Assembly: GCF_001984195.1 (NCBI RefSeq)
Contig: NZ_MTQN01000009.1
Location: 62,001 to 126,000 of the forward strand
Origin: Kribbella sp. ALI-6-A
GTDB taxonomy: Bacteria; Actinomycetota; Actinomycetes; Propionibacteriales; Kribbellaceae
Direction: 5' to 3'
DNA length: 64,000 nt
Shown: piece after piece, positions 18,701-34,435 of the stretch
Layout of the letters: the number at the start of each line of letters is the position of its first letter
How positions within the stretch are numbered: position 1 is the stretch's first letter
Notes under the pieces: generated by a model
Told to the model about the DNA's origin: nothing
The model's database searches: none
Seen by the model: only the letters and a program-made list of their open reading frames with translations
Made by a program: the position numbers and the translations under genes

Positions 18701-19582
18701 TCACCGGCCAACCATCGGCGGGACGGAATTCCGCGGCGCGACGGTCGGCGCCGGTCCGCCGCCGCCGGGCGGCGGGCTGGTGGAGCTGGGCGGCGGTTCG
18801 GGCGGGTCGGTCGGGTCGGTCGGCGGGGTGTCCGTCGGGGTGTCGGTCGGGCTCGGGGTGACGTTCGGGGTGCAACTGTCCGGCAGCGGGATCGGAATGG
18901 TCAGCGTCGGCGCGGGCGCGCCGACGGTCCAAGTCGGGCAGCTGACGCTGATCGTCGGCGGCTCGGCGGTCTTGGTCGGTGCGCCCGGGCCCTCCGTCTT
19001 GGTGATGACCTCGATCGGAGGGATCTGCTGGGTCTCGTCCGGCTTGGTCACGCCCTGTTCGGCGTGCGCCTCACCGGTGCCGTGGGCGTCGAGGCTGGCG
19101 ATGCCGACCATGCCGAGGAACGTCGTCTTGTTGCTGATCGTCACGTCGACCGCGAGATCCTCGTCGGTCAGTTTCGAGGTGCCGCAGGCGGTCACGGCGG
19201 GATCGTTCGCGGTGACCTGGGCGCAGAACTCGACGACCGCCGTATTGGCCTTGACGGTGTCGATCTTGGCCTCCGCGACCTTGAGGTCGATGGTGGCTGC
19301 GCCGGCCCGGGCGGCCTCCTGGGCGTAGCCGACCGCCCTGGAGCGGGCGCCCAGCTGGCGGCCGCCGTCGATCACCAGGCCGGCGAGAGTGAAGATCATC
19401 AGGGCGAGGATGACGACGGCCGGGCTCAGGGCGCCGCGGTCGTTGCTGGGGGCATCGACGCGGAACCACGCGGTGAGGCGGGCGACCGGGCCGCGGCTCG
19501 TCGGCGTACGGCGAGCGCTCGGACGGCGGGCGCGCGTACGGCGGGCGGGGCGGGCGCCCGCGGGGTCAGGGGTTCTCGCCAT
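18701..19582 (-). CDS. TadG-like pilus assembly protein
   Basis: A 293-residue protein. A basic, Arg/Pro-rich N-terminus of about 48 residues leads to the hydrophobic pilin-like helix DRGALSPAVVILALMIFTLA, then ARSRAVGYAQEAARAGA, the pattern of TadE/TadG pseudopilins. The C-terminal 70 residues are a Pro/Thr/Ser-rich tail (repeated PTDTPP and PPEPPP) likely to cross the cell wall. Unlike the other pseudopilins here it lacks the Glu at position +5 after the Gly. It overlaps the preceding gene by 17 nt, so translation is probably coupled. Confidence 0.82.
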   Translation of the reverse strand: MARTPDPAGARPARRTRARRPSARRTPTSRGPVARLTAWFRVDAPSNDRGALSPAVVILALMIFTLAGLVIDGGRQLGARSRAVGYAQEAARAGAATIDLKVAEAKIDTVKANTAVVEFCAQVTANDPAVTACGTSKLTDEDLAVDVTISNKTTFLGMVGIASLDAHGTGEAHAEQGVTKPDETQQIPPIEVITKTEGPGAPTKTAEPPTISVSCPTWTVGAPAPTLTIPIPLPDSCTPNVTPSPTDTPTDTPPTDPTDPPEPPPSSTSPPPGGGGPAPTVAPRNSVPPMVGR

Positions 19583-20012
19583 CTCGGACTCCGCGGTAGG
19601 GGTCGAGGGAGCTGGAGAACTTCTTGGTGATGGTGGTGTCGCCGCCGATGCCGAGCAGGCCGAGGTCGCGGTAGTCGATGGTGCAGGTGACCTCGACCGA
19701 CAGCGGGGTGCCGGCGACGAAGCCGGTGGTGATACTGCCCGACGCGGTGGTCTTGCACGACTCGACGGCCTGGTCCATCGTCCGGGCGACCGCCTGGTCG
19801 ATGCGGGCCTGGGCGTCGCCGAGCGAGCGGGCCTGGCTGGCGGAGCGGGCGCCGTCGCGGGCCGCGCCCTCGAGCAGCGACGAGGTCTGGAAGTAGCGGC
19901 CGCAGGCGAGCAGGAAGAAGAACAGGATCAGCAGGATCGGCGCGAGCACGACCATTTCCAGGGCCATCGTGCCGCGCTCGGTCCGGCGGTGACCTGACAT
20001 CCGGGCGCTCAC
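19566..20012 (-). CDS. TadE-like pseudopilin (second copy)
   Basis: A 148-residue protein with a prepilin-like region TERGTMALEMVVLAPILLIL: Gly, then Glu at +5, then a hydrophobic helix. The rest is a small extracellular domain with two cysteines (ESCKTTASG, EVTCTIDYRD). GTG 20012 overlaps the upstream stop in a GTGA arrangement, implying coupled translation; ATG 20000 is an in-frame alternative four codons later. TadE proteins are minor pseudopilins needed for Flp pilus assembly. It is the fourth structural gene after the pilin-processing and motor genes. Confidence 0.85.
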   Translation of the reverse strand: MSARMSGHRRTERGTMALEMVVLAPILLILFFFLLACGRYFQTSSLLEGAARDGARSASQARSLGDAQARIDQAVARTMDQAVESCKTTASGSITTGFVAGTPLSVEVTCTIDYRDLGLLGIGGDTTITKKFSSSLDPYRGVRDGENP

Positions 20013-20494
20013 TCGTCGTCCGCTTCGAACTGCTCGATGGGACCGGTGGCCGTGCGGGACACGGTCAGCGTCAGGCCGGGCACCAGAGAGATGGTCTCGC
20101 CGGTCACCGTGAACGAGACCTGCCCCTCGGGATCGTTGTACGCCGGGGAGTCGACGTTCGCGTCGCCGAGGGAGTTGCCGCCGAGCTGCTGGGCGTAGGC
20201 CTCGATGTCGGCGCGGACCTTCTCCCCGATCGCCGGGCTGTACTGGGTCGGCTGGACCATGCGCAGGCGGGAGACGCCTTCCTGCGCGGCGTTCAGCGCG
20301 ACCGAGCGGCCGTACAGCCACAGGGCGGTCTGGATCGAGACGAAGATCAGCGCCATGATCGTCGGCGCGAGGATCGCCAGTTCCAGCGAGCTCGCGCCCC
20401 GCTCCGAGCGCCGGCCGGTCCGAGGGGACGCCGAGAGACCGCCGGACCGGGCCAACAGCCCAGGGGCGGTGCTCCGGTGACGTCCCTGCGGCAA
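20009..20494 (-). CDS. TadE-like pseudopilin (first copy)
   Basis: A 161-residue protein. A 30-residue basic leader ends in ERG, followed by ASSLELAILAPTIMALIFVS: Gly at -1, Glu at +5 and a hydrophobic helix, the TadE domain hallmark. The C-terminal domain is beta-rich and acidic (DPEGQVSFTVTGETISL). It begins 3 nt after the Flp pilin stop and ends in a GTGA overlap with the second TadE gene. The product is probably cleaved by a TadV-type peptidase encoded elsewhere and incorporated into or near the pilus base. Confidence 0.88.
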   Translation of the reverse strand: MPQGRHRSTAPGLLARSGGLSASPRTGRRSERGASSLELAILAPTIMALIFVSIQTALWLYGRSVALNAAQEGVSRLRMVQPTQYSPAIGEKVRADIEAYAQQLGGNSLGDANVDSPAYNDPEGQVSFTVTGETISLVPGLTLTVSRTATGPIEQFEADDE

Positions 20495-20497
20495 CGC

Positions 20498-20716
20498 TCA
20501 GCCCTTCTGGATCTCGCCGGTCCGCCGGTCGATGACGCCCTTGACCACGGCGCCGATGGCGATCGCGGCGGCGACCAGGATGGCCGAGATGATCGCCCAC
20601 TCCAGCGCCGAGGCGCCGAGCTCGCTCTCGCCCCGGCGGGCCCGCGCCCGTTGGTTGTCGGCCCGCGCCAGCGCGTACCCGACCATCGCGCGCACGAACT
20701 GCACTTCCAGGTTCAT
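20498..20716 (-). CDS. Flp-type pilin
   Basis: A 72-residue pilin precursor. A 33-residue polar leader (MNLEVQFVRAMVGYALARAD...) ends at ELG; then ASALEWAIISAILVAAAIAI gives the processing Gly, Glu at +5 and a hydrophobic helix. Trp replaces the Tyr usually found at +6 in Flp pilins. The mature part is only about 38 residues. A ribosome site AAGG lies 7 nt before ATG 20716. A hairpin in the 100-nt gap upstream may raise its expression relative to the motor genes by RNA processing. It may alternatively be a minor TadE-like pilin. Confidence 0.82.
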   Translation of the reverse strand: MNLEVQFVRAMVGYALARADNQRARARRGESELGASALEWAIISAILVAAAIAIGAVVKGVIDRRTGEIQKG

Positions 20717-20737
20717 CCGATGACCTTTCCCACTCGT

Positions 20738-20754
20738 GAGCCCGAACCGGGCTC
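20738..20754. ncRNA. Intergenic hairpin between TadC and the pilin gene
   Basis: GAGCCCG (20738-20744) and CGGGCTC (20748-20754) form a 7-bp stem with a 3-nt loop just upstream of the pilin ribosome site on the minus strand. It may be an RNA processing or stabilising stem or a weak terminator; CATACT beside it could be a pilin -10. Confidence 0.4.
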
Positions 20755-20816
20755 AGTATGCCCGGTACGACGACCGAGCTGCCTCGACGGATCCCTTGCC
20801 CGATCCGCCGTCACAA

Positions 20817-21737
20817 CTAACTGCCCAGAATCGCGGCGCCCGCCGGGTAACCGAGGAACAGCATGAAGGCGGCGCACATCACCAGCTGCGCGACCAGCAT
20901 GGACTGGGAGCGTTCGCCGGCCTTGCCCTCGACGTCGGCAAGTTCCTTGCGGCGCAGCGACGCGGCCCGCGAGAGCAGCGACGCGCGGATCTTGGCGCCC
21001 TCGTCGCCGGCCAGGGCCAGCGCGGAGGCCAGGTCGCGCAGTTCCTCGACGCCCAGGTCCTCGCCGAGGCGGGCCATCGCGTCCCACGGGGTGATGCCGA
21101 TCAGGCGGGCGTTGGCCAGCGCCTGGCGGATCCGGGCCATCGCCCAGTGGTCGCCGATCGTGGAGGCCGTCATCAGCGCCTCGGGCAGACCGCGGCCGCC
21201 GGCCAAGTTCATCGCGACCAGGTCGAGGAAGCTGCCGACCACGTGGCGGAAGTCACGCCGGCGTTCCTCGGCCTCCTGGCGCAGCGCCAGGTCGGGCAGG
21301 AAGAACGCGAACGTCATACCGGCCAGCGTCACCACCGCCGGGGCCGCGCCCGGCGCCGGGAAGCCCAGGTACGACGCCGCGAACAGCACGAGCGGGAAGA
21401 AGATCAGCGCGCCCAGCGCGAAGAACACCTTCGTGGCAAGCATCGCCGCGAACGGCTGGTTCATCACCGCGAGGTCGCGGCGCAGCCGGCCGAACGTCCA
21501 GCCGCGCGCGTTGGCCTCGGCCTCCAGCCGCCGGCCGAGCGTCTCGCGGGCCTTGTCGACCCCGCCGAGCACCTTCTCCCCCGCCGCGCTCGCGGTGGAG
21601 GCGCTGGTGTAGCCGGACCGCCCGGCGTCGATCCGCGCGATCGTGGACAGCACGTTCGGGGCCGGCCGGACGAACATCCGGACCAGCAGGAACACGCCGA
21701 GACCCACCAGCCCGCCACAGATGAAGGCCCATGTCAT
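20817..21737 (-). CDS. tadC: TadC-like type II secretion system F protein
   Basis: A 306-residue inner-membrane protein. Helices lie near residues 1-22 (WAFICGGLVGLGVFLLV), 108-150 and at the C-terminus (MLVAQLVMCAAFMLFLGYPAG). The cytoplasmic T2SSF domain (residues about 160-280) includes FRHVVGSFLDLVAMNLAGGRGLPEAL. TadC pairs with TadB as the membrane platform of the Flp pilus motor. ATG 21737 overlaps the TadB stop in an ATGA arrangement. The open frame extends far upstream but antisense codon patterns there are not protein-like. Confidence 0.9.
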   Translation of the reverse strand: MTWAFICGGLVGLGVFLLVRMFVRPAPNVLSTIARIDAGRSGYTSASTASAAGEKVLGGVDKARETLGRRLEAEANARGWTFGRLRRDLAVMNQPFAAMLATKVFFALGALIFFPLVLFAASYLGFPAPGAAPAVVTLAGMTFAFFLPDLALRQEAEERRRDFRHVVGSFLDLVAMNLAGGRGLPEALMTASTIGDHWAMARIRQALANARLIGITPWDAMARLGEDLGVEELRDLASALALAGDEGAKIRASLLSRAASLRRKELADVEGKAGERSQSMLVAQLVMCAAFMLFLGYPAGAAILGS

Positions 21738-22639
21738 CCGCCCACCACCTCCATCCGCTCGTCGCCGGCCCGCTTGGCCCGCTTGTCGCCGGCCCGGATC
21801 AGGAACCGCTCGGGCACCTCGATCTTGGCCAGCCTGCGCAGCCAGACCAGGCCCACGGCGTACAGGGCGATCACCAGGAACAGCACGAACTGGCCGACGA
21901 AGCTCGTGTACGGCTCGACGTACTGCGGGTTGAACAGCACCAGCGCGGCGGCGACCACCAGCGTGATCGCGACGACGACCTGGACCGATCGCCGGGTGGA
22001 TCGCCGTTCGGCCGCGACCTTGCGTCGTACGTCGAGCTCCTCGCGGGCGGAGTCGGCCAGCGCGGTCAGCACCTCGCGCAGACCGGGTCCGCGCAGCCGC
22101 GCGTTCAGGACCAGGGCCGCGACGATCAGGTCGGCCGACGGGTCGTCCAGGTCGTCGGCGAACCGCATCAGGGCCGAGGGCAACGGTTCGCGGATCCGCA
22201 GCCGGTCGACCAGCAGGTTCAGGCCGGGCTTGATCGCCGGGGCGGCGTTGACCGCAGTCGCCGGGATCGCCTGCTCGAGGCCGACCGCGCCCGCGATCGT
22301 GTCGCGCAGCGCCTCGGTCCAGGTGGCCAGCGCTTCCAGCCGCTCGATCGCCCGGCGTTCCTCGCCGGTGCCACCGAAGAACCGGTCGGCCAGCGCGGCC
22401 AGCAGGCCGAGCGCGGCGGCCAGCACCAGCCAGCGGGTCACGACGAGCACGAGCAGGCCGACCACGAGTCCGGCGCCCAGCCGCGTCAACTGGCGACGGC
22501 TGTCCGCACTGCGGCTGCGCTTGAACAGCGACGGGGTTTCCTCGCGCGGCTCGGTGCCGCGCAGCGCGACGATCAGCAGCAGGATCCCGCCGCCGACCGC
22601 CGCGCCGCACAACAGCGCGATCAAGGTCCGGTCAGTCAT
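21734..22639 (-). CDS. tadB: TadB-like type II secretion system F protein
   Basis: A 301-residue inner-membrane protein: helix near residues 5-25, a pair near 60-90 (LVVGLLVLVVTRWLVLAAALGLLAAL), a cytoplasmic T2SSF domain (TWTEALRDTIAGAVGLEQAI), and two C-terminal helices (VQVVVAITLVVAAALVLF and FVLFLVIALYAVGLVWL). It is the partner of TadC and contacts the TadA ATPase. Its start lies 9 nt after the TadA stop and its stop overlaps TadC. Position in the cluster and topology support the call. Confidence 0.9.
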   Translation of the reverse strand: MTDRTLIALLCGAAVGGGILLLIVALRGTEPREETPSLFKRSRSADSRRQLTRLGAGLVVGLLVLVVTRWLVLAAALGLLAALADRFFGGTGEERRAIERLEALATWTEALRDTIAGAVGLEQAIPATAVNAAPAIKPGLNLLVDRLRIREPLPSALMRFADDLDDPSADLIVAALVLNARLRGPGLREVLTALADSAREELDVRRKVAAERRSTRRSVQVVVAITLVVAAALVLFNPQYVEPYTSFVGQFVLFLVIALYAVGLVWLRRLAKIEVPERFLIRAGDKRAKRAGDERMEVVGG

Positions 22640-22648
22640 GGGTTCCCC

Positions 22649-23959
22649 TCACGCCCACCGGCCGTGCACCATCGGCCGGTAGCCGAAGTGCTCGAGCTCG
22701 TCCATGCAGGCGATCGGCGCGTGCGCCGCGGCCCGGCCGTCCGGTCCCGGCGCGAACACCTCGCCGGACAGCACCCGGCCGTCCCAGCCGGTCACCTCGC
22801 GGATGCTCTCGATGTAGCGCGACAGCGTTCCGCCGTGCTGGTAGTCGTTGTGCTTGCGGACGAACACGACGAAGTCGAGCGCGCCGGAGATCAGCATCTG
22901 GGTGGCTTCCATCGGCAGCCGCTCGGACGCCTGGATCGCGTAGGTGCTGATCCGGTTGAACACCTCCATCGAGCTGTTCGAGTGGATCGTCGACAGCGAA
23001 CCGTCGTTGCCCTGGCTCATCGCGTTCAGCATCGTGACGATCTCGTCGCCGAGCACCTCACCGACGATCACCCGGCTGGGGTTCATCCGCAGCGAGCGGC
23101 GGACCAGGTCGGCCATGCTGACCTCGCCGACGCCCTCGGAGTTCGGCAGCCGCTCCTCGAACGCGACCACGTTCGGGTGCAGGTCCTTGAACTCGCCGAG
23201 GCCGAGCTCGAGCGAGCGCTCGACGGTGATCAGCCGCTCGTGCGGCGGGATCTCGTTGGCCAGCGCGCGCAGCAGCGTGGTCTTGCCGGAGTTGGTGGCG
23301 CCGGCGATCATCACGTTCTTGCGGGCCGCGACGGCCGCCTTGAGGAACGACGCGATGTCGTCGGACATCGTCCCGTTCGCGACCAGGTCCTTGAGGAACA
23401 CCCGGCCCAGCCGGGACCGCCGGATCGACACGGCCGGCCGCGACGTCACGCCCATCACGGCCGACAACCGCGACCCGTCCGGCAGCCGGAGGTCGAGCTG
23501 CGGGTTGGCGGAGTCGAACGGCCGGCTGGTCAGGCCGGCGTGCGCGGCCAGGACCTGGATCAGCTCGACCAGTTCCTCGTCGGACTCGGCGACCGGTCCG
23601 GGCCGTTCCTCCCGGCCGTCGCCGTACTGGACGAAGACCTGGTCGCAGCCGTTGATGTCGATGTTCTCGACCTCGGGGTCGTCGATCAGCGGCTGCAGCC
23701 GGCCGACGCCGAACAGCGCGGAGTGGATCGCGCCGGCGATCTGCGCGTCGTCCTCGGGCGTCGGCGGCGTACGGCCCTCGGCCAGCTCGTAGCGGGCGTG
23801 ATCCTCCAGCACCTGGACGATCAGCGACCGGGCGTACTCCCGCTCGTCCTCCGCGCTCATCGGCGGTACGCCGTTGACCTGGTCGCGGCGGCGCTGCTCG
23901 TTCAGCCGCTCGGCGACCTGGACCCGCAGTTTGCGGACCAGTTCCTGGTCGGTGATCAC
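22649..23959 (-). CDS. tadA: TadA/CpaF family pilus assembly ATPase
   Basis: A 436-residue cytoplasmic secretion ATPase. An N-terminal helical domain (residues about 1-130) precedes the core: Walker A AGATNSGKTT near residue 217, the Asp/His boxes (EERLPN...GEVSMADLVRRSLRMNPSRVIVGEV, Walker B) and the conserved SNGNDGS-like loop SQGNDGSLSTIHSNS. It powers Flp pilus assembly by ATP hydrolysis at the TadB/TadC platform. GTG 23959 overlaps the TadZ-like stop in a GTGA arrangement and has GGAGAGG upstream. Confidence 0.94.
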   Translation of the reverse strand: MITDQELVRKLRVQVAERLNEQRRRDQVNGVPPMSAEDEREYARSLIVQVLEDHARYELAEGRTPPTPEDDAQIAGAIHSALFGVGRLQPLIDDPEVENIDINGCDQVFVQYGDGREERPGPVAESDEELVELIQVLAAHAGLTSRPFDSANPQLDLRLPDGSRLSAVMGVTSRPAVSIRRSRLGRVFLKDLVANGTMSDDIASFLKAAVAARKNVMIAGATNSGKTTLLRALANEIPPHERLITVERSLELGLGEFKDLHPNVVAFEERLPNSEGVGEVSMADLVRRSLRMNPSRVIVGEVLGDEIVTMLNAMSQGNDGSLSTIHSNSSMEVFNRISTYAIQASERLPMEATQMLISGALDFVVFVRKHNDYQHGGTLSRYIESIREVTGWDGRVLSGEVFAPGPDGRAAAHAPIACMDELEHFGYRPMVHGRWA

Positions 23960-24753
23960 CGCGATCCCTCTCCGAAGGCAGCCTGGGCCATGTCGTACTC
24001 GTACTGCGACGGCATGCCGACCGCGGCCGCCATCTCGGCGGCGATCTCGGTGGCGGACCGGATCAGCGCGGTCCGGTCCAGCCGGCCCTGGCCGCGGCCG
24101 TCGAAGAACGCGGCGCCGGCCGGGTCGTAGGCGAGGTGCCAGCGGTGCTGGATCTGGACCGACATCGCGTCCAGCACCGACCAGACCTGCTTGACGCCGT
24201 CGCGGCGCTTCGGGTCGGCGACGACGATCACGCCGAGCCGTGCGTCGACGTGGTGCACCAGCGACGACAGCCGCTCCCGCAGGTGGGCGACCGACGAGCC
24301 GGTCGCCGTACAGACCAGGACGACCAACCGAGCAGCCTGTACGACGGGCAGCTGCGGCGAGGCGGGACCGATCCGGCCGCAGTCGGCCAGCACATCGGCA
24401 CTGTGCATCTGGTTGAAGGTGATGCCCAGCGGCGCCCACAGACCGCCCATGCCGCCGATCTGCTCCGGCGAGCGGACTCCGAGCATCACGTCGAGCCCGC
24501 CGTCGAGCTGCTGGCTGTGCGCGAGGATCACCTCGTCGCCGAGACCCTTGCGGCCCGCCGCGGCCAGGCTGATCAGACCGCGGTCCGAGTTCAGCGGCTG
24601 GCCACCGGGCGCGGTCATCCGGATCGCGACGTCGCTGCCGGCCGGGTCGCACTCGGCCAGCAGCACCGGCCGCGGCCAGAGCGCTCCGAGCACCAGTCCG
24701 GCCGTCGTCACTCCGGGCGAGCCCTTGGCGCTCGCCAACGCGACCAGAGCCAT
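23956..24753 (-). CDS. TadZ/CpaE-like ParA family protein with altered Walker A
   Basis: A 265-residue ParA/MinD-like protein. The N-terminal P-loop region reads ASAKGSPGVTTAG, where the usual GKT(T/S) lysine is replaced by Val; the first lysine of the deviant Walker motif remains. A DPAGSD motif near residue 40 stands for Walker A'. The fold continues with VVLVCTATGSSVAHLRE and LGVIVVADPKR. CpaE/TadZ proteins place the pilus motor at a cell site. The altered P-loop suggests weak or no ATP hydrolysis. ATG 24753 overlaps the CpaB-like stop (TGATG). Confidence 0.85.
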   Translation of the reverse strand: MALVALASAKGSPGVTTAGLVLGALWPRPVLLAECDPAGSDVAIRMTAPGGQPLNSDRGLISLAAAGRKGLGDEVILAHSQQLDGGLDVMLGVRSPEQIGGMGGLWAPLGITFNQMHSADVLADCGRIGPASPQLPVVQAARLVVLVCTATGSSVAHLRERLSSLVHHVDARLGVIVVADPKRRDGVKQVWSVLDAMSVQIQHRWHLAYDPAGAAFFDGRGQGRLDRTALIRSATEIAAEMAAAVGMPSQYEYDMAQAAFGEGSR

Positions 24754-25475
24754 CAACGGGCTCCGCGGTTGGTGGAGATCTCCGGCTTGGTCGCCGCGGA
24801 CAGCTTGACCAGCACGAGCGTCTTCGCCGCCGCCGAGGCGGCCACCGCGGTGGACTGATCTGTCGGTACCAGGACGGTGACGTTGACCGTGGTGTTGGCG
24901 CCGGTCTTGCCGTCGGTGAGCGAGGTCCCGTTCACAGCGGTCACCTCCGCCGCCGGGGCGATCACGGACGCGGGCCCGCTGTCCTGGTTGGCCGGCACCC
25001 GGACCAGGCGGACGATGTCACCGTCCTGGATCGGCTCGGCCGGCGCCCGGCCGCTCTCCAGGCTCACGCCGACCAGCGCACCGCCCTCGGGAACCGGGTC
25101 GGGAACGAAGTTCGACCTGGTCACGAACTGACCCTTGTAGATCCAGGACGTCGTGTACTTGCCGAACAGCTGGTCCCGCTCCGACCACAGCACGAGCGGG
25201 CGGGTCGCGCCGGCCAGGTCGCCGCGCGCCAAGTCCTTGTCGGCGATCTCGTAGCCCGGTGGCAGGTCCTTGTTGACCGCGACGAAGTACTGCCGGTCGC
25301 CGCTGCGCAGCGCGATCAGCGCGGACCCGGCGGCTCCGAGCAGGATGAGAATCACCGCCAGGGCGGCCAGCGCGGGACGGCGTTCGCGGCCGCCGGGCAG
25401 CCGCCTCGCGGTGCCGGCGGACTTGGCCGCGCGGGCTCCGGCGGCAGGGGGACGGTTGCTGGAGGAGAAACTCAC
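24753..25475 (-). CDS. CpaB-like SAF domain protein
   Basis: A 240-residue protein with a basic N-terminus, one transmembrane helix near residues 35-58 (ALAALAVILILLGAAGSALI), then a SAF/beta-clip domain (YFVAVNKDLPPGYEIADKDLARGDL). CpaB/RcpC-type proteins lie in the envelope of Flp systems and may bind peptidoglycan or act as periplasmic scaffolds. The last 60 residues are beta-rich with Val/Ala repeats. GTG 25475 is preferred since TACGGT sits 6 nt upstream, giving a leaderless message for this first gene of the Tad operon; a further in-frame start at 25523 lies upstream of that -10. Confidence 0.8.
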   Translation of the reverse strand: MSFSSSNRPPAAGARAAKSAGTARRLPGGRERRPALAALAVILILLGAAGSALIALRSGDRQYFVAVNKDLPPGYEIADKDLARGDLAGATRPLVLWSERDQLFGKYTTSWIYKGQFVTRSNFVPDPVPEGGALVGVSLESGRAPAEPIQDGDIVRLVRVPANQDSGPASVIAPAAEVTAVNGTSLTDGKTGANTTVNVTVLVPTDQSTAVAASAAAKTLVLVKLSAATKPEISTNRGAR

Positions 25476-25481
25476 GCGCCT

Positions 25482-25487
25482 ACCGTA
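25482..25487 (-). promoter_or_regulatory. -10 hexamer of the Tad operon, leaderless
   Basis: TACGGT on the minus strand ends 6 nt before GTG 25475. It is the likely promoter of the whole cluster from the CpaB-like gene onward. No good -35 with 17-bp spacing is seen. Confidence 0.4.
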
Positions 25488-25538
25488 ATGGCCAGAAGGT
25501 GCCAACCGCGCCGCCAGGTCCACGCCGAGCCGAGCCTG

Positions 25539-26012
25539 TTACCCCGCGGCGACCTCGGTCACCTCGTCCCGCGTCAGCAACTCGGTGAACGCACCGGGTC
25601 CGCCGTACAGCTGGTCCAGGTAGGTGTACAGAGCTTGCAGGCACCGGCCGAGCTCGCCCTGCCAGTCGGCCTGCGCGGCCAGCTCGGCGGCGAGCACGCG
25701 TCCCTCGGCCAGCGTCACGGCCGCGTTGACCGGCTGGTCGAGCCGCGATTCGCCCTCTGTCGTTGAAAAATCCACCGGTACGCCGTGCCCGCGCGCCGCC
25801 CGGATCCGCGCGGCCAGGGCCGAGCGCTCCGGCTCGGGCAGCAACCGGTCGAAGCCGGCGCCGCCGTACAGCTCGTCGAGGTAGTCGGTCAGCGCGCCGA
25901 ACAGCTCCAGGGCGTCGTACTCCATGCCGGTGGTGGCGGTGTGCCGGAGCCGCGAGGTCAGGCTGCGGGCTTCGGCGACGGTCCACGACGAGGGCGACAG
26001 AACAGTGCTCAC
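25539..26012 (-). CDS. Small internally duplicated protein of unknown function
   Basis: A 157-residue acidic protein with no signal peptide. It holds two copies of a helical unit: DYLDELYGGAGFDRLLPEPE at about residues 43-62 and TYLDQLYGGPGAFTELLTRD near the C-terminus, each preceded by a short amphipathic helix (ALELFGALT and CLQALY). The pair looks like a tandem duplication and fusion. GTG 26012 begins VSTVLSPSSW; the open frame extends to 26051. It diverges from the giant-protein gene at 26190 and could be functionally tied to it, but this is only positional. The family is not recognised. Confidence 0.72.
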   Translation of the reverse strand: MSTVLSPSSWTVAEARSLTSRLRHTATTGMEYDALELFGALTDYLDELYGGAGFDRLLPEPERSALAARIRAARGHGVPVDFSTTEGESRLDQPVNAAVTLAEGRVLAAELAAQADWQGELGRCLQALYTYLDQLYGGPGAFTELLTRDEVTEVAAG

Positions 26013-26189
26013 GCGGCCAGCCTCGCACACCAAGGTTGATGCGCCGGGCAACCAAAGTGGCCGGCGGATGTCAATCGCCCACCGTGTTCGGATCGAGATC
26101 GTTGGTCGGTTGCCCGCTGGAACCCCACCGGTTACTTTGCGGTCACAGTCACGTCACCAGGAGCTGATGAGGATCGGGGGCGACCAGCG

Positions 26190-29100
26190 ATGACGCAGGC
26201 ACCGGAAGTCACGTCGCCTGCCGGTCATCAGCGGTTCACACCCGCGGAGCGCGCGAGGGCGGCCCTGGGTGTAGCGCTCGGGGTGGTGACGCCGGAGGCC
26301 GTCGCGCTCGACGACGGCAGGGTCCGGCTCAGCGACGCGGGTGAGCTGCTGGAGCAGCCGGCGATGGCTCGGCTGGACACGCGGCTGGCGACGCTGGCCG
26401 CACGCGAGGACGTCACCGACCAGCGGCTGCTGGTCGAAGCGGTGGCCGCAGTGGGTGCCGAGGTCGACCACACGCGGGGCGGGTCGTCGCCGGTGGACGG
26501 AGCCACAGTCGCGCTGGACCAGCTTCTCGATCTGCCGGACGTGTCCGAGGACGTGCGCGACCAGGCCAGGACCGTGCTGCGGAACGTGCTGGAGACCAAC
26601 CAGCTGACCACCGACGCCGCAGTACGACGCCTGGCGGCGGAGCGAGCCGCTCAGCGCGCTCCCCTGCTCGCCGACACCGTCCGGGCGTCGTACGAGATCC
26701 GTCGTGAGGCCGAGCTGCTCGGTCGGCCCGGCACTCCCCCGGCCGTTGTCCGGCCGCGCACCGGCACGGGCCGGCATCGCCGGCAGGTCGCCGCACGACA
26801 CCGCCGCGCCGGAGCGCCCCGCACAGCCAGTACGCCGGCCGTCGGCGGGCTGACCCCGACCGGACGTCCGGAGTCCGAGCCGAGGCTGACGCCCAGCGAG
26901 GCGCTCGCCGCGCTCACTTCGGTCCAGCCCACCGACCTGCCCGGCGAGATCACCGCGCCGATCGAGGTCGTCGGCCGCCCGCACCTAGGCCTGGTCCCCA
27001 CAGCCGAGCACGGCAGACAGCACTTCCGGGTGGTCGACGAGGAACCTCCACGCGGCCTGGTCGCGCAGACCACCGTCCGCGCAGGCAGTCTGGCCGACCC
27101 GCACGTGGTCCGGATCGCCAGTGGCGTGCCGGCCGGGCAACTCCTCCGCGTCTGGACCAGCCAGGTGGGCGAGGCGCTTCGCGAGGTCCACTCCCGCACC
27201 ACGACGCCGACCAGTCTTGTCGGCGGGCTGCGAGCCCGGTTCCCCCGGCTTCAGGGCCGCGAGCGGCAGGCGGCCGCGCAGTACGACCAGTTCCGGCTGG
27301 TCAGTCGGAACTGGCGCGAAGAACAGCTCCGGCCAACGCCTGACCCCGCCAAACTGGCCGCACTGCGCAGCGACCTGGAGACCCTGGCCAGGGCGATCGA
27401 GCGCACCGGTCAGCCCGCGCCGGCCCTGCCCGACTCGGCCCGCGCGTTGCACGTCGTCGTACCGCCTCGGACAGCGCCGACACCGCCCGAGATCAGCAGG
27501 ACTGGGCAGCTGCGCGAGCAGGTGCTCAAGCAGATCGCCGGATTGGAGAAGGCCGCCGAAGGGCAAGACTCTCGCGCGGAACACCACCGTACGACGGCCG
27601 AGAACGCGACGAAGGCGGCGGCCGACGCGCTGGCCAAGGCGGAGATCGAGGAGAGCCGCGAAGACTCGGCAGCGGGTCGTCGCGGCGGCAAGCTCCGGGA
27701 CACCGCGCGATCGGCGACGGCGAAGTCCGGTCGGCACCTGACACTCGCCGCGACCTGTGACACCGCAGCCGCCAAGGCGCGCGAGGCGGGTCAGGCGTAC
27801 GTGGCACTGCTCGACAAGCTGGACGAGCTGGAGGCCACCGGTGCCCAGCCCGGCCCGGAGATCCAGGCGTTGGCCCAGGCGGCGACCGAGCAGGTTTCGG
27901 CGTACCGGGCCGCGGTGGCGGCGACGCTGCCGTCGCAGGAGGTCCAGCACACCGCGATCACGTCCGGCCGGTTCCCGCACCTGACCAAGCTGACGCGGGA
28001 GCTCAACCAGGAGCTCGCCCGCCGGCAGAGCCCCTTCCGCTACACGCCGGAGGTGCTGCACAGGCGGCTGCGGTCGGCGACCCGCCGGGTGCTCTCACCG
28101 AACGGCGTACTGCTCACGGTCGGCAACAACCCTCGAGCGGACTCCGACGAGCTGATCCAGTTCAAGATCAAGCTGAGTCCCGGTGAGCTGCGCGAGGTCC
28201 AGTCGTCCCCACTGACCTTCGACGAGGGCGCCTTGGCCCAGCTGCGGCAGGGTGGTTTCAGCGTCGCGACGACGATCGTCGAGTCGCTCAGCTCCACCGG
28301 GGGCGTCACGCTGAAGACGCTCTTGCCCGACTCCAGCGCGCTGAAGGCCGCCACGGAGTTCGTCACCCCCGGCTTCGAGTACGCCGTGGGCCAGAGCCAC
28401 TCGGTCACCGGCGGCGCGCAGGAGAACGGCCTGTCCGGCGCGGTCGAGGTGCTCAACGGCGAGATCCTCCGGTACGCCGCGGACGCACCGCAGTGGCGCT
28501 GGCAGGTCCGCGGCGGAGTGGGCGAGCCCTGGTCGCAGGAGAACGTCGTCGACTCCGGTGACCCGCAGGACGCCACCCAGCTGGTCATGGGCATCAGCCA
28601 CACCTACACGGTCGCACCACCCCAGGACACGGTTCGGCTGGCGGACGTGAAGGAGCTCGGGGACCTCGACGTGGAGCCGGTCGAGGAGCTGCCCGAGCAC
28701 GTCGCGTCCCGGGTCGACGGCATGGACGACCTGGCCGACAAGGGCATCGCCGGACTGCAGGCCCGGATCGGCAAGCTCGACCGGACCGCCCATGACCAGA
28801 TCCGGGCGCTGTGTGTGGAGGACGCCCCCGCGGCCCTGACCGAAGCGACCCGGCCAGGCGGCTTCGGCCGGATCATCTCCAACGGCGGCCGCGCGGTCGC
28901 GTACGCACAGCTGGAGACGGTCGTCGTCCGGGAGACCGCGGAACTGCTCAGTGACAGCTCCCCCGAGCACAAGATCGAGCGGATCCGGGCCGGCTTCTCC
29001 GGCGCCTCCGGCGGCCAGTCCTTCGGTACGTCGACCTCGGCCGCGGCCACGCTCGGCTACGCCGGCACCGCGCTGTCCGACGTCGGCTCCGGAACGACGG

Positions 29101-32100
29101 ACCTCGGGCCGACCGTGCGCGGCGGCCGGAACGTGTCCCGCGGCGACAGCCTCAACGTCAGCGACGTGGCCATCCACCCGAGTGTCCAGCGCACCGAGCA
29201 GACGATCGGAGTCAAGGTTCGGCTCGAGCACAAGCTCACCTTCCACCGCCTCGACAAAAACGAGTCGTTCGCGGTCGGCAACGACGGCGACGCCGTCCTG
29301 CGGCTGCCCGAGAACGAGGCGCTCGACTACGACCTCCCGGTGCCGAAGGCCGCGCTGGTGCTCGACGAGCACGGGAAGCCGCAGCTCAGCGCGGACGGCG
29401 GCGTACTCACCCGCGGCTGCGCCCAGCCCGGCGAGTCGCTGAAGCTGCCGGTCTGGATGGGCGACGAGGAGGGGCAGCTGCGCGGCGCCGGTCCCGCGCT
29501 GGTGCAGAAGCTGCGCGGCGCGACCCCGGCGTACCAGGCGTTCGTGCGGCACCTCAGTGACGAAGGCATGGTGCCGAAGCTCGACAGGAAGTTCCGCCCG
29601 ATCATGAGCGAGCTGGCCGGCAAGGACCCGGCGCTGGTGGCCAGCCAACTCGCCAACCTCGAGCGGGTCGCGCAGCAGCTGTCGCGGCACCGGCTGGAGA
29701 CCGGGTACGACCAGGCCTGCCAGGGCGGCTTCGTGTTCGCGCTGACTCAGCACCACACTGGTCACCCGCCACAGGAGCGCACCTACCGGGTCGCGATGCG
29801 GCAGGACGTCAAGAAGTTCAAGTGGCTCGGTCTGAACCGCTCGCAGACCGCGACCAACCTGCACATCGGGTCGAACACCACGAGCCGGTCCCGCAGCCGG
29901 TCCAAGGGCCTGCCCTGGCTGGCCAGGCTCGGCTTCAGCAACAATCCCCAGGAAGGCCAGTCCGGCAGTACGCCGAACGGCGGGGCGTCGTACGGGCGGG
30001 CCGCGCTCGGCCGCTTCTTCTCCTGGGTCACCGGGACGACGGTCAACGGGGTGTCGCTGACCGAGAGCACCGCGGCGCTCGCCGACTTCCGGATCCCGCA
30101 CACGCTGACGGTCACCGAGGTCTTCGCCGACGGCGACTCCGAGCCGATCGTCGAGGTGGAGGGCAGCGCGAAGCTGTCGATCGACAGCGAGTTCTGCGAC
30201 CGCGGCGAGGCCCCGTCCGTGGCGATCGACGGCGCGGTCGACCCGCACCTGCTGCAGTCGGCGAGCTGGCAGCACCTGGACGCCGGCGACCTCACGTCCC
30301 GCCTGTCGGCAGCGCTGCCTGCGGTCGCGCGCAGCGACTCCGCCGCGCTGCATCACCTGGCGGGCTTCGTCAACGTCCGCAACCTCAACGCGCACCCGGA
30401 GCTGCTGACCACCGAGTACCGGACCGACTTCGCGGTCAGCCCGGCGCCGCCGGACGCGCTCCAGGCGACTGCCCAGCGCGGTCTCACCCCGCGCCGCGGC
30501 AGCATCTCGCTGACCACCCGGATCGAGAACCTGCGATACGTCGGCAGCGGCCACCCGATCATCGGCGACATCAACCTGACCCTCGACAGCGCCGGGGCCA
30601 CCACCGGCAGCTCGACCGGCAACACCGCGGGCATCGGTGGCGGCAGCGGCACGGTCGACCCGGCCGGCGACGGCGGGAACGCCTCGGTCGGCGTGAACCG
30701 GTCGGGCAACGTGTCCAGCTCGAGCAACCAGCTCGCGATCCGTGGGGTCGAGCGGCTGAACATCAAGGACGGGCAGCACTACCAGTTCGTCGGTGACCTG
30801 GTGCTGGAGGCCAGGGTGAAAGCGGCCGGTCTGGTGACCCCGAAGAACGTGCGGCTCGACAACGGCACGGTGGTGCTCACGCTCCCGGAGCGGGACGCAC
30901 TGCGGATGTACGGCACCAACCAGCTGGACCTGCCGCTGGAGAAGGTGTCCGACGCGGTCGAGCGGCTGGTGGACGGCAATCTCAGCCTGGACCGGCGGAC
31001 GTCCGCGAGCCTGATCCGCCGCTACCGGCAGGACAAGCAGGGCGTCACCACCGGGCTCGCCGGCACGCACACCGACGAGAAGCTGAAGGCGGCGCTGCGG
31101 CGGACGACGAAGATGTCACCGCCACGGTCGGAACGGGAAGAGTTCGAGCAGGTCGCCGTCCAGGCGGCGAAGGTCGCCGAGAAGCGCGCCGAGGCGGAAC
31201 TGCCGGACCACTACCGCACCACGATGGGCGCCGGGCTGATCGACCGCGACCTGTTCGTCGATGCCGAAGGCAACGTCACGACGATGGAACGCGAGGTGCA
31301 GGCCGCGGTCGCCGAGGCGGTGCCGGACGCGGTCGGCGACCCGGCCGTCGGGGCGGCGATCCGCAGCCAGCTGGCCGGCAGCCGGTGGCGCGGGCACGCC
31401 GAGAAGCTGAAGGACCCGACCGGTCTCAACCTCGAGTTTCCGTTCGGCGGCGAGCAGCCGGGCACGACTGCGCCCGGGACCATCCGGATCCGGATCCGGA
31501 TGGTCCGCACCGGCCCGATCACCATCGACGAGTCCCCGGACGCCACCGCCGCCGAGGGGGCTCCAGAGGCCGAAGCTCCCGAGCCCGGCGAGAACGCGCT
31601 GATCATCCTGCAGGGCTACGACTACACCGAAGCCGGTCGCGGGATCACCCGCAGCACCGGGTACGGCGCTGACCTCGGCGGCGGTCTCACCGACGGCGAC
31701 GTCGGATCGGCGGGACTGAGCACCGAGCTGACCACCGCGGAGTCCGTCCAGGTCGTCGACCAGGACACGCATCTCAGTCGCGCGCTGTGGTCCAGGACCA
31801 AGCGGGTCGAACACGACTTCCGCCTCGTCATCGAGGTCGAGCAGACGCCGGGCGCCGGCGCCCAGACCAAGGGCGTACTCCGCCGGACCGCTGACCGGCT
31901 CCGCGACGACGACCAGCGACCGGCTCCAAAGCGCCGGGAGGCGACCGGCCGGCTGACCCTGCTCGTGCCGGCGTCGGACGTCAACCAGGTGCCGCTGCCG
32001 GCCCCGGAGTTCCCCGACCACCGGCCGGTCGTCCTGTCCACGCTGAAGTTCCTGCGCGGCATCCAGCTGCACGACGAGTTCGGTCAGCTGCCGGACGAGC

Positions 32101-33326
32101 AGGAGACGATCGACGACCCGGACTTCGACGACGCGCTCGTCACCAGGGTGACCCGCGAGCTGAGCAGCCGCCGCTGGCTGACCCAGGCCGGCGTCCAGCT
32201 GCACAAAGGCCTTTTGCGCGACGAGCTGAACGGCAGCGCCCGCCGAATCGCCTTCGAGCGTTCCGACGGCACCGGAAGCCCCTGGACGCCGGGTCTGCCG
32301 GTGCCCGGCCATGGGTCGCGCCAGGTCCAGCTGCGGCTCCGCGCCGAGCTCTCCGGTCTCCAGCTCGTCAGCGACAGCTCGGAGCACGCCCAGCTAGGTG
32401 AGGCCCACCGAGGCCAGGTCGCCGTGAACACCACCCAGGAAAGCACCAGACTCGCTCCCACCAGCCAATCCGTCGGGATCAGCGACCCGAACACCGGGCT
32501 GAAGGCCGCTGCGTCGTTCGGGGACCAGGCCAAGGAGAAGAGCACCGACACGACCGGCGTACGGGACGAGACCAACTCCAACGAGTCCGGTGAGCTGATC
32601 ACCGCGCAGCTGCTGGTCACCTTCCACGTCGACGCCCGGCAGCAGCGCGTCACCCGCGACCACCGGGCCAAAACGGTGCGCGAGGCGACCTTCGAGAACG
32701 CCGCGACCGGCGTGGTGACGCTGAGCATGTTCCGGCACGAGTTCGAGGCGATGCAGGCGCGGGTCGAGGCCGGTCAGGCGCCGCTGCAGAACTGGAACCC
32801 CGACGAGCTCGCCAAGCTGGCCAAGCGCGTCCCGGTCCGCCGGGTCACCGCCAGCGAGGTCGTCACCCGGCCCGACGGCTCGCGGTCGGTCGAGCCGTAC
32901 CGGCCGCTGGTCGAGGCGCTCGCCAGGGCGCGCAGCGAGCGGGTCGAGGTCGTCGTCACGATGAAGCAGCAGGACGGCAAGCGGCAGGTCTACCGTGCGC
33001 TGCCGAACGGGACGATGATCGGCAAGGACGACAACGGCTACGGCGCGGCGTTCGCCACTCTGCACCCGTCACTGGCGATGCTGGCCCAGGGCAAGGTCGA
33101 TCTCCGCCGGCTGTACGACGCCAAGGGCATCGGCGAGCGATTCAGCGGGGCCGTGGTCCAGGCGCTGGAGGAGCACGGCGTACCGGCCTCGGCGCTGACC
33201 GGGCTCGAGCACAGCAGATCGGGACCGCGCAGCGAACCCGAGCGGGCGCAAGGCGCGAAGGCCCACGCCGCCCGGCACGTGGCGATGGCCCGCGGCAAGG
33301 GCGGCAGTGGAATGGGAGTGCAGTGA
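26190..33326 (+). CDS. Giant multi-repeat protein of 2378 residues, function unknown
   Basis: No signal peptide or transmembrane helix is visible. Residues 1-180 are helical and acidic. Near residue 310, LLRVWTSQVGEALREV recalls a degenerate segment seen in giant actinobacterial effector-like proteins. Residues about 435-590 form a charged coiled-coil region. From about 930 on, a module recurs roughly every 280 residues: a Gly/Ser/Thr-rich beta stretch (near 943, 1219, 1468, 1821 and 2093), an amphipathic beta segment, then a hydrophobic strand and helix such as VLRLPENEAL, VVLTLPERDAL or TLLVPASDV. No catalytic domain is seen at the C-terminus. It overlaps the next gene by 4 nt (GTGA). A polymorphic-toxin or giant-effector role is inferred, not shown. 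Confidence 0.85.
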   Translation: MTQAPEVTSPAGHQRFTPAERARAALGVALGVVTPEAVALDDGRVRLSDAGELLEQPAMARLDTRLATLAAREDVTDQRLLVEAVAAVGAEVDHTRGGSSPVDGATVALDQLLDLPDVSEDVRDQARTVLRNVLETNQLTTDAAVRRLAAERAAQRAPLLADTVRASYEIRREAELLGRPGTPPAVVRPRTGTGRHRRQVAARHRRAGAPRTASTPAVGGLTPTGRPESEPRLTPSEALAALTSVQPTDLPGEITAPIEVVGRPHLGLVPTAEHGRQHFRVVDEEPPRGLVAQTTVRAGSLADPHVVRIASGVPAGQLLRVWTSQVGEALREVHSRTTTPTSLVGGLRARFPRLQGRERQAAAQYDQFRLVSRNWREEQLRPTPDPAKLAALRSDLETLARAIERTGQPAPALPDSARALHVVVPPRTAPTPPEISRTGQLREQVLKQIAGLEKAAEGQDSRAEHHRTTAENATKAAADALAKAEIEESREDSAAGRRGGKLRDTARSATAKSGRHLTLAATCDTAAAKAREAGQAYVALLDKLDELEATGAQPGPEIQALAQAATEQVSAYRAAVAATLPSQEVQHTAITSGRFPHLTKLTRELNQELARRQSPFRYTPEVLHRRLRSATRRVLSPNGVLLTVGNNPRADSDELIQFKIKLSPGELREVQSSPLTFDEGALAQLRQGGFSVATTIVESLSSTGGVTLKTLLPDSSALKAATEFVTPGFEYAVGQSHSVTGGAQENGLSGAVEVLNGEILRYAADAPQWRWQVRGGVGEPWSQENVVDSGDPQDATQLVMGISHTYTVAPPQDTVRLADVKELGDLDVEPVEELPEHVASRVDGMDDLADKGIAGLQARIGKLDRTAHDQIRALCVEDAPAALTEATRPGGFGRIISNGGRAVAYAQLETVVVRETAELLSDSSPEHKIERIRAGFSGASGGQSFGTSTSAAATLGYAGTALSDVGSGTTDLGPTVRGGRNVSRGDSLNVSDVAIHPSVQRTEQTIGVKVRLEHKLTFHRLDKNESFAVGNDGDAVLRLPENEALDYDLPVPKAALVLDEHGKPQLSADGGVLTRGCAQPGESLKLPVWMGDEEGQLRGAGPALVQKLRGATPAYQAFVRHLSDEGMVPKLDRKFRPIMSELAGKDPALVASQLANLERVAQQLSRHRLETGYDQACQGGFVFALTQHHTGHPPQERTYRVAMRQDVKKFKWLGLNRSQTATNLHIGSNTTSRSRSRSKGLPWLARLGFSNNPQEGQSGSTPNGGASYGRAALGRFFSWVTGTTVNGVSLTESTAALADFRIPHTLTVTEVFADGDSEPIVEVEGSAKLSIDSEFCDRGEAPSVAIDGAVDPHLLQSASWQHLDAGDLTSRLSAALPAVARSDSAALHHLAGFVNVRNLNAHPELLTTEYRTDFAVSPAPPDALQATAQRGLTPRRGSISLTTRIENLRYVGSGHPIIGDINLTLDSAGATTGSSTGNTAGIGGGSGTVDPAGDGGNASVGVNRSGNVSSSSNQLAIRGVERLNIKDGQHYQFVGDLVLEARVKAAGLVTPKNVRLDNGTVVLTLPERDALRMYGTNQLDLPLEKVSDAVERLVDGNLSLDRRTSASLIRRYRQDKQGVTTGLAGTHTDEKLKAALRRTTKMSPPRSEREEFEQVAVQAAKVAEKRAEAELPDHYRTTMGAGLIDRDLFVDAEGNVTTMEREVQAAVAEAVPDAVGDPAVGAAIRSQLAGSRWRGHAEKLKDPTGLNLEFPFGGEQPGTTAPGTIRIRIRMVRTGPITIDESPDATAAEGAPEAEAPEPGENALIILQGYDYTEAGRGITRSTGYGADLGGGLTDGDVGSAGLSTELTTAESVQVVDQDTHLSRALWSRTKRVEHDFRLVIEVEQTPGAGAQTKGVLRRTADRLRDDDQRPAPKRREATGRLTLLVPASDVNQVPLPAPEFPDHRPVVLSTLKFLRGIQLHDEFGQLPDEQETIDDPDFDDALVTRVTRELSSRRWLTQAGVQLHKGLLRDELNGSARRIAFERSDGTGSPWTPGLPVPGHGSRQVQLRLRAELSGLQLVSDSSEHAQLGEAHRGQVAVNTTQESTRLAPTSQSVGISDPNTGLKAAASFGDQAKEKSTDTTGVRDETNSNESGELITAQLLVTFHVDARQQRVTRDHRAKTVREATFENAATGVVTLSMFRHEFEAMQARVEAGQAPLQNWNPDELAKLAKRVPVRRVTASEVVTRPDGSRSVEPYRPLVEALARARSERVEVVVTMKQQDGKRQVYRALPNGTMIGKDDNGYGAAFATLHPSLAMLAQGKVDLRRLYDAKGIGERFSGAVVQALEEHGVPASALTGLEHSRSGPRSEPERAQGAKAHAARHVAMARGKGGSGMGVQ
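31477..31506. repeat. Perfect 30-bp palindrome inside the giant gene
   Basis: The 30 nt read identically on both strands, with a 15-bp arm and no spacer. The core is repeated ATCCGG units that encode alternating Ile-Arg (IRIRIR) near residue 1768. It could form a cruciform or RNA hairpin, but may only reflect codon repetition. Confidence 0.6.
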
Positions 33327-33865
33327 GCGACCACGACCCGAAGTACGCGATCGCACGGACGAACGACGAGACGCTGCTGTTCCTGGAGCTGCACCCGTGC
33401 CCGGACTGCGGCTCGATCGAGACGCCGTGGGACCACGGGCTGGCCGACGACGACGGCGAGCTGGTGATCAGGTACGCCGGCATCTGCCCAGGCTGCGGCG
33501 CCGAGCGGGAGTACCTGTTCGGTCTGCCCGAGCGGGAAGCACCGCTCGGGCCGTTCCCGAACTTCGGTGGACCCGAACCGTCCGAGCTGCTCGACGCCGG
33601 TCAGTGGATGTCGGTCGCGGACAGCGCGGCCGCGTCGGTGCCGGTGGACGCACCGGCCGGCGACGAGCAGGCCCGGACGGTGATGGCGATCGCCCGGGCG
33701 GCGGTCGAGGAAGTGATCAAATTCGTGCCGCCGGACGCCGCTGCCGTGCCGGACGACGCCTTCTGGACCGACGAGGGGCGCGCGGTGCGGGACGCCGAAC
33801 CGGGTAGGTTTCGGGTCGACCGACTGCTCGTCGTCCGCGACAGCTACGGCGAAGACGACAGATGA
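33323..33865 (+). CDS. Zinc-ribbon protein, first of two tandem paralogues
   Basis: A 180-residue cytoplasmic protein. The N-terminal half has two CxxC pairs (HPCPDCGS near residue 32 and GICPGCGAE near residue 56), a likely zinc ribbon. The C-terminal half contains LLDAGQWMSVAD and, later, FVPPDAAAVPDDAFWTDEG. GTG 33323 overlaps the giant-protein stop (GTGA), so translation is coupled. The second half is shared with the next gene. Position right after a giant protein suits an immunity or chaperone role, but no homologue of known function is recognised. Confidence 0.82.
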   Translation: MSDHDPKYAIARTNDETLLFLELHPCPDCGSIETPWDHGLADDDGELVIRYAGICPGCGAEREYLFGLPEREAPLGPFPNFGGPEPSELLDAGQWMSVADSAAASVPVDAPAGDEQARTVMAIARAAVEEVIKFVPPDAAAVPDDAFWTDEGRAVRDAEPGRFRVDRLLVVRDSYGEDDR

Positions 33866-33889
33866 CACCGGGACCCGGGAGTTTCTTTG

Positions 33890-34435
33890 ATGCTGACCGC
33901 GAGGACCTTGGCCGAGGCAGAGGTCTACCTCAGCGTGCTGGCCACCGCCGAGGACGCGCCACCCGTGACCGAGACGCCCGAGACGACCCGGACCGAGGGC
34001 CCGGACGGCTGGACGGTCCGATCGGCGGTCGGTGAGGTCCAGGTGCTGTACCGGACCGAGGAGGCCGCGCGATTGGCCGAGGCCCGGTTCGGCCTGGGCA
34101 ACTCGCTGCTGCTCGATGCGGGCGCCTGGGTGCAGCTGGCGTCGGTCTGGGCCCGGCGGGCACAGGACGCCGACTTCGCGTACACCGGTCAGCCCGGCCA
34201 GGACCGGCGGACGGTCGAGCTGAACTGGGAGTTCGCCCGCGACGCGATGGCCGAGGCGCTGAAGTTCCTGCCCGACGGCGCCGACGAGGTGCCCGACGAG
34301 GGCTTCTGGACCGAGCTCGGGCTGCGCATGCACGCGCAGGACCGGGAGCTGTTCACCCGCGCGAAGCTGACCGAGGACTTCGAGTTCTACCGCGACATGC
34401 TGTCGGACTTCCGCGCCCTGTACGGCGAGCAGTAG
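33890..34435 (+). CDS. Second tandem paralogue, no zinc ribbon
   Basis: A 181-residue acidic protein. It shares LLLDAGAWVQLAS and KFLPDGADEVPDEGFWTELG with the preceding gene in the same order and spacing, but its N-terminus (MLTARTLAEAEVYLSVLATA) replaces the zinc ribbon. A GGGAG ribosome site lies 8 nt before ATG 33890, and the gap to the previous gene is 24 nt, so the three genes likely form one operon. Function unknown; immunity-like or adaptor role is inferred from context. Confidence 0.82.
   Translation: MLTARTLAEAEVYLSVLATAEDAPPVTETPETTRTEGPDGWTVRSAVGEVQVLYRTEEAARLAEARFGLGNSLLLDAGAWVQLASVWARRAQDADFAYTGQPGQDRRTVELNWEFARDAMAEALKFLPDGADEVPDEGFWTELGLRMHAQDRELFTRAKLTEDFEFYRDMLSDFRALYGEQ

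What the first reader, a model, noticed from the sequence alone, without database searches (positions are those of the whole stretch)
26190..34435. Giant five-module protein with two coupled small partners: candidate undescribed system
A 2378-residue protein without signal peptide carries a module recurring about every 250-340 residues (near 943, 1219, 1468, 1821, 2093): Gly/Ser/Thr-rich beta stretch, amphipathic beta segment, then strand-helix ending like LPENEAL, LPERDAL or VPASDV. A coiled-coil region lies at about 435-590. A GTGA overlap couples it to a zinc-ribbon protein, followed 24 nt later by a paralogue. The unit abuts a Tad pilus locus. Giant repeat proteins followed by small immunity-like genes are typical of polymorphic toxin or giant effector loci, yet no toxin domain is visible at its C-terminus.
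Basis: partly seen in the sequence, partly recalled or inferred. Interest (0 to 1): 0.78.

Follow-up and report, generated by a model that had tools for sequence, protein, structure and literature searches.

The report
Retired giant toxin-shell protein beside pilus
In almost every species of the soil bacterium Kribbella, a huge protein with two small partners sits next to a pilus locus; it is a cousin of giant secreted toxin carriers that has lost its export tag, its protease active site and its toxic cargo but keeps the large beta-strand 'shell', so it may show what that shell does by itself.

Summary
The 2378-aa ORF, the GTGA-coupled zinc-ribbon gene and its paralogue are intact, under purifying selection and conserved. 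AlphaFold2 gives each a run of long (15-44 residue) beta strands, with helical linkers between modules. Sequence-level repeat homology is weak, barely above a reversed-profile control.

Related giants were found in 35 of 38 Kribbella genomes, in no other genus sampled in the order, and rarely elsewhere. Close relatives outside the pilus-linked group are tied to type VII secretion (T7SS): 3200-7070 aa, an N-terminal WXG100_2 export domain, YbaB/WXG partners, the same zinc-ribbon gene (often the paralogue too), an HExxH peptidase-like domain, and sometimes nuclease, AbiEii or GT4-conflict domains. The Tad-linked Kribbella genes form one clade (100/100) within these. They lack the export domain, have a dead or deleted peptidase motif and no recognisable cargo, and occur intact in 15 genomes with no detectable EccB or WXG100_2. 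C-termini are conserved.

So this is not a polymorphic toxin but a T7SS-independent descendant of such a cassette. The beta modules are predicted to share one barrel-like sheet; the pore, shell or Tad role is inference.

The parts
26190..33326 (+). Giant protein, 2378 aa
   Evidence: relatives by profile in 35/38 Kribbella genomes; omega 0.32
26862..27509 (+). Residues 225-440: degenerate relative of an HExxH...NEFR metallopeptidase-like domain (here WTSQVGEALREV...YDQFRLV)
   Evidence: alignment A3: HELSH/HEISH in most T7SS-linked relatives, HQLS/TSQV etc. in Tad-linked copies
27492..27959 (+).
   Evidence: sequence only; not modelled or tested
28260..28514 (+). Beta module M0 (partial), residues 691-775
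   Evidence: AlphaFold2 model
28863..29309 (+). Beta module M1, residues 892-1040, strands of 15-32 residues
29730..30185 (+). Beta module M2, residues 1181-1332
30492..30887 (+). Beta module M3, residues 1435-1566
31476..31970 (+). Beta module M4, residues 1763-1927
32319..32732 (+). Beta module M5, residues 2044-2181, strands up to 44 residues
32757..33209 (+). Conserved C-terminal domain (...GAAFATLHPxLA...VDLRxLY...), not a variable toxin tip
33323..33865 (+). Zinc-ribbon partner, 180 aa, translationally coupled by the GTGA overlap
33887..34435 (+). Paralogue of the zinc-ribbon partner without the ribbon; start 33887 (TTG) or 33890 (ATG)
18701..26051 (-). Divergent Tad pilus locus (TadG/E, TadC, TadB, TadA, TadZ-like, CpaB-like, small ORF), conserved neighbour

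Best explanation
This is a genus-core, T7SS-independent descendant of a giant T7SS effector cassette. SHOWN: the Tad-linked Kribbella giants form one clade whose close relatives outside it (other Kribbella copies, Streptosporangiaceae) are WXG100_2-bearing T7SS-linked giants followed by the same zinc-ribbon partner and, in most Streptosporangiaceae loci seen, the paralogue. The Tad-linked clade has lost the export domain, the YbaB/WXG export partners, the peptidase active-site residues and any recognisable cargo, but keeps the beta-module region, its C-terminal domain and the small partners under purifying selection. PREDICTED: the modules contribute long strands to one continuous, barrel-like beta sheet with alpha-helical linkers outside it. 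INFERRED: in the T7SS relatives this region is the carrier (shell or pore) that accompanies and perhaps translocates enzyme domains, with the HExxH domain processing it; in the Tad-linked form the bare shell has been kept for a non-toxic role in the producing cell, probably connected with the neighbouring Tad machine, with the zinc-ribbon protein and its paralogue acting as dedicated folding or assembly partners of the shell rather than as immunity proteins.
For: Distribution: 35/38 Kribbella genomes, all matches in open frames; 1 of 37 genera sampled in the order. T7SS-linked relatives with EccB/EccD/EccC/mycosin/WXG/YbaB neighbours; WXG100_2 plus Endonuclea_NS_2, AbiEii, GT4-conflict. Tree: Tad-linked clade 100/100, T7SS-linked groups outside it. 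EccB-negative and WXG100_2-negative genomes with an intact Tad-linked giant: 15. Peptidase motif intact versus degenerate or deleted (class B). C-terminus conserved. Synteny with Tad genes on one side and the VLRF1/SUF genes on the other. Long-strand architecture; best structural matches are almost all membrane beta-barrels and MACPF pores, with strands drawn from the whole model range (CymA rmsd 2.8-3.0 A over 172-176 residues, Z 8.1-8.2). Zinc-ribbon partner roughly 49-87% identical to the window's across pilus- and T7SS-linked classes despite differing cargo.
Against: No fold match is significant (Foldseek best E 1.2e-3; Z about 8-9 lies near the background typical for such models). The long strands show only patchy hydrophobic alternation, so membrane insertion is not supported by sequence. 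There is no recognisable signal peptide or known export route, which sits badly with a pore or envelope role. The Tad link is positional: two genomes (G008, G020, very similar at this locus) lack both, one (G028) has Tad without the giant. That the partners are chaperone-like is inferred from conservation only.
Confidence: 0.45

Rival explanations
1. It is still an antibacterial effector: the beta shell itself forms a pore in rival cells and is released by lysis or an unknown route, and the two small proteins are immunity factors.
For: Kinship with T7SS multi-domain toxin carriers; barrel-like and MACPF-like matches; small coupled genes downstream; faster evolution than neighbours such as TadA (omega 0.32 versus 0.09).
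Against: No export domain, no recognisable signal peptide, conserved C-terminus, near-universal presence and fixed location in the genus, partner conserved across classes with differing cargo. Three genomes (G003, G014, G021) keep the paralogue without the zinc-ribbon gene.
Confidence: 0.22
2. It is a Tad-pilus accessory, for example a wall-spanning conduit or a scaffold needed for pilus assembly or regulation.
For: Invariant divergent adjacency to the Tad locus and joint absence with it in G008 and G020.
Against: The relatives are T7SS-linked, not Tad-linked; G028 keeps Tad (TadA 93% identical) without the giant; no export signal.
Confidence: 0.2
3. It is an intracellular decoy or antidote that pairs with incoming T7SS giants of kin through shared modules.
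For: Homologous, catalytically dead and retained also in genomes without T7SS, a pattern expected of an immunity decoy.
Against: No direct evidence; 2378 aa is costly for a decoy.
Confidence: 0.08
4. An eroding relic without function.
For: Loss of export domain and active site.
Against: Open in all matches in 35 genomes, purifying selection on all three genes, conserved coupling.
Confidence: 0.03

Closest known systems
CpnT-like / WXG100_2 T7SS polymorphic toxins of Actinobacteria (Pfam PF25547)
   Same: The T7SS-linked relatives of this giant carry WXG100_2, lie beside EccB/EccC/mycosin and WXG/YbaB genes, and can hold enzyme domains.
   Different: The window protein has no WXG100_2 domain, no T7SS neighbours, no cargo and no variable C-terminus.
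Giant multi-toxin proteins of Actinobacteria (Zhang et al. 2012, PMC3482391)
   Same: Very long chains combining several toxin and peptidase domains, including a metallopeptidase; the 12,384- and 19,630-aa ORFs in G538 contain related shell segments, the longer one with Scabin-like and Gln_amidase domains.
   Different: The passages of that paper read here do not describe the beta-module shell, the zinc-ribbon partners or a T7SS-free Tad-linked form.
MACPF/CDC pores and outer-membrane beta-barrels
   Same: Long antiparallel strands packed into one curved sheet in the predicted models.
   Different: No significant sequence or fold match; single chain built from repeated modules; monoderm host.

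Membership tests
T7SS polymorphic toxin (CpnT-like) | N-terminal WXG100_2 export domain | tested here: not met
   0 Pfam families in P0001; present in T7SS-linked relatives
T7SS polymorphic toxin (CpnT-like) | Encoded with, or only in genomes with, a T7SS | tested here: not met
   Tad neighbours; 15 genomes with the giant lack EccB and WXG100_2. The window's own genome does have EccB elsewhere (C7)
T7SS polymorphic toxin (CpnT-like) | Variable C-terminal toxin domain | tested here: not met
   C-terminal 200 residues about as conserved as the rest; no toxin model
T7SS polymorphic toxin (CpnT-like) | Cognate, toxin-specific immunity gene | tested here: inconclusive
   Partner co-inherited but conserved across differing cargo; no assay possible
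HExxH metallopeptidase | Intact HExxH and downstream Glu | tested here: not met
   Degenerate in the window protein and the Tad-linked rows of A3; mostly intact in T7SS-linked rows
MACPF or outer-membrane beta-barrel | Significant fold match | tested here: inconclusive
   Foldseek best E 1.2e-3, Z 9.1 or below
Anti-phage defence system | Match to a known defence protein model | tested here: not met
   0 PADLOC matches
Tad pilus component | Membership of a described Tad gene set | tested here: not met
   No Pfam/NCBIfam model of the giant; adjacency only

The most novel reading that the evidence does not exclude
The shell is a new, single-chain, modular giant beta-barrel that T7SS loci of Actinobacteria use as a carrier or translocation pore for enzyme cargo; Kribbella has domesticated a cargo-free copy, with dedicated zinc-ribbon assembly factors, for a role at the Tad machine.
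Probability: 0.18. Interest if true: 0.88.

Novelty: new variant of a known kind. Interest (0 to 1): 0.62.

Why it matters
Giant T7SS-linked proteins of Actinobacteria are known from sequence, but how chains of 3,000-20,000 residues are folded, exported and deliver cargo is open. This work defines a shared roughly 1,500-residue beta-module core and two dedicated partner genes that travel with it across families. It also gives a natural, cargo-free, export-free version of the core, which is the experimentally tractable form. The clade-wide loss of export domain and catalytic residues with retention of the core is an unusual example of toxin-machinery domestication.

Tried and rejected
Pfam, NCBIfam and PADLOC on the three proteins: nothing for the giant, only insignificant hits for the paralogue and weak sub-threshold zinc-ribbon hits for the partner. 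PDB sequence search with profiles of modules 0-2 and of the peptidase-like region: no meaningful hit. DUF6782/eCIS_core kinship of the peptidase-like region: only sub-threshold. Sequence-only repeat proof: reversed-profile control gave similar E-values for most pairs, so it was downgraded. Membrane-hairpin test by hydrophobic alternation: positive for a minority of strands, mostly the shorter outer ones plus M5b and partly M2b and M3b, not for the rest. Foldseek/VIA found no confident fold relative. The genome search with the whole giant failed twice; profile A2 was used instead. Literature: no held paper found on the Tad-linked gene or its partners.

Full report
OBSERVATION. The window (70% G+C; an 8.1 Mb genome; named relatives are Kribbella) holds one uninterrupted 2378-codon frame at 26190-33326, followed with a GTGA overlap by a 180-aa protein with two CxxC pairs and, 21-24 nt further, by a paralogue that lacks the ribbon. 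The two small proteins share 38% identity over 78 C-terminal residues. Between the window and its closest orthologue (L021) omega is 0.32, 0.23 and 0.35 for the three genes, against 0.09 for TadA, so all three are constrained but evolve faster than TadA.

MODULES. Plain self-comparison finds no repeat. Windowed profile-profile comparison gives in-register matches among 906-1052, 1199-1343, 1461-1602 and 2019-2186 and among the helical linkers, but a reversed-profile control reaches E 3e-5, so only the linker pair 1665-1780 / 1943-2061 stands out by sequence. Structure prediction is clearer. Two AlphaFold2 models (residues 640-1370, pLDDT 82; 1180-2378, pLDDT 80) show repeated runs of long antiparallel strands separated by helical linkers: a partial module at 691-775 and full ones at 892-1040, 1181-1332, 1435-1566, 1763-1927 and 2044-2181.

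FOLD. Foldseek gives no significant match. The highest rows are MACPF pores (perforin-2, membrane attack complex), LptD and TonB-dependent barrels (E 1.2e-3 at best). VIA-align rows are almost all outer-membrane barrels, with aligned residues spread over the whole model (for example CymA, rmsd 2.8-3.0 A, 172-176 residues, model range 38-955). I read this as strands of several modules sharing one curved sheet in the model; coordinates could not be inspected directly. It does not establish membrane insertion: hydrophobic alternation is seen in a minority of strands only.

FAMILY. The zinc-ribbon partner matches 34 of 58 sampled relatives, only in this genus. A profile of module 1 (A2) matches 35 of 38 genomes of the genus, every match in an open frame, no other genus in the order sample, 1 of 396 genomes across the phylum besides the window's own and 5 of 395 across the class besides it. 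Within Kribbella there are three classes: Tad-linked giants of about 2,350 aa with partner and paralogue (the window's kind), tandem Tad-linked copies of about 2,100 aa with the zinc partner, and T7SS-linked giants. Three genomes (G003, G014, G021) have only the paralogue. The T7SS-linked giants sit among EccB, EccD, EccC, mycosin, WXG and YbaB-like genes, measure roughly 3,700-7,070 aa where the gene was seen whole across adjoining pieces, and are followed by the same zinc-ribbon gene. They carry WXG100_2, and in cases Endonuclea_NS_2, AbiEii and GT4-conflict domains. In Streptosporangiaceae (named example Nonomuraea gerenzanensis) the cassette is YbaB-like, small WXG-like, giant of 3,200-3,540 aa with WXG100_2, zinc-ribbon partner and, in most loci seen, the paralogue, beside EccB where the locus reaches it. 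Thus the three genes travel together across families.

WHAT WAS LOST. A domain ahead of the beta region carries HELSH/HEISH plus a downstream NEF/NEx Glu in most T7SS-linked Kribbella copies. In the Tad-linked copies it reads HQLS, SQV or similar, and it is gone from the tandem class. WXG100_2 is absent from the window protein. The C-terminal 200 residues are conserved, not polymorphic.

POLARITY. With shell segments from a 12,384- and a 19,630-aa ORF of a distant genome (G538, likely Streptomyces; one of the two lies near an EccC-like gene) as outgroup, the Tad-linked giants form one clade (100/100) and the T7SS-linked groups branch outside it. Long branches make the exact placing of the Streptosporangiaceae rows unsure. 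The simplest reading is one move away from T7SS in the Kribbella ancestor.

T7SS INDEPENDENCE. EccB exceeds its cut-off in 21 of 38 genomes and WXG100_2 in 21 of 38. Fifteen genomes have the intact Tad-linked giant and neither. The window's own genome does have EccB and two short WXG100_2 ORFs elsewhere, but no second shell copy.

TAD LINK. Tad-side or VLRF1-side neighbours are conserved in all fetched loci of this class (VLRF1 identified). In G008 and G020, which are very similar at this locus, the giant and the syntenic Tad locus are both missing; G028 keeps Tad (TadA 93% identical) and lacks the giant. This is suggestive, not proof, because one deletion could explain the first two.

MECHANISM. 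Shown: kinship, losses, conservation, T7SS independence. Predicted: a barrel-like multi-module sheet. Inferred: that this region is the carrier or pore of the T7SS relatives, that the HExxH domain processes them, that the small proteins are folding or assembly partners, and that the Tad-linked form serves the producing cell. Zhang et al. 2012 (PMC3482391) describe gigantic multi-toxin proteins of Actinobacteria with metallopeptidase, caspase and ART domains; the T7SS-linked relatives fit that description, the Tad-linked form does not.

VERDICT. The toxin reading holds for its relatives, not for this copy.

Noticed in passing
L091-L097 (genome G538): Open frames of 19,630 and 12,384 aa, among the longest bacterial ORFs, hold divergent shell segments; Scabin-like and Gln_amidase domains lie in the longer one, and an EccC-like gene lies near the other.
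   Followed up: partly
L063:6487-19500 with L041:3-8693 (genome G035): A single 7,068-aa T7SS-linked ORF combines WXG100_2, a DNA/RNA non-specific endonuclease, AbiEii and GT4-conflict domains; shell profiles match in both pieces and the peptidase-like motif occurs twice in the second.
   Followed up: partly
L117-L121: In Streptosporangiaceae giants the peptidase-like domain is found on both sides of the shell in most copies, often with HExxD in place of HExxH, and no Pfam cargo was found in the two scanned.
   Followed up: partly
L049:9929-10354 and L050:9630-10160: Solitary zinc-ribbon homologues without a recognised giant next to them; the immediate upstream genes (785 and 755 aa, opposite strand) were not identified.
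   Followed up: no
window:13985-16975: 996-aa protein at the far end of the Tad cluster with a LysM-like and a BTAD-like look by eye, no Pfam hit; absent from the site together with Tad in G008 and G020.
   Followed up: no
L051: In genome G034 the T7SS-linked giant is read by the gene caller as two overlapping ORFs near its 3' end, possibly a frameshift.
   Followed up: no
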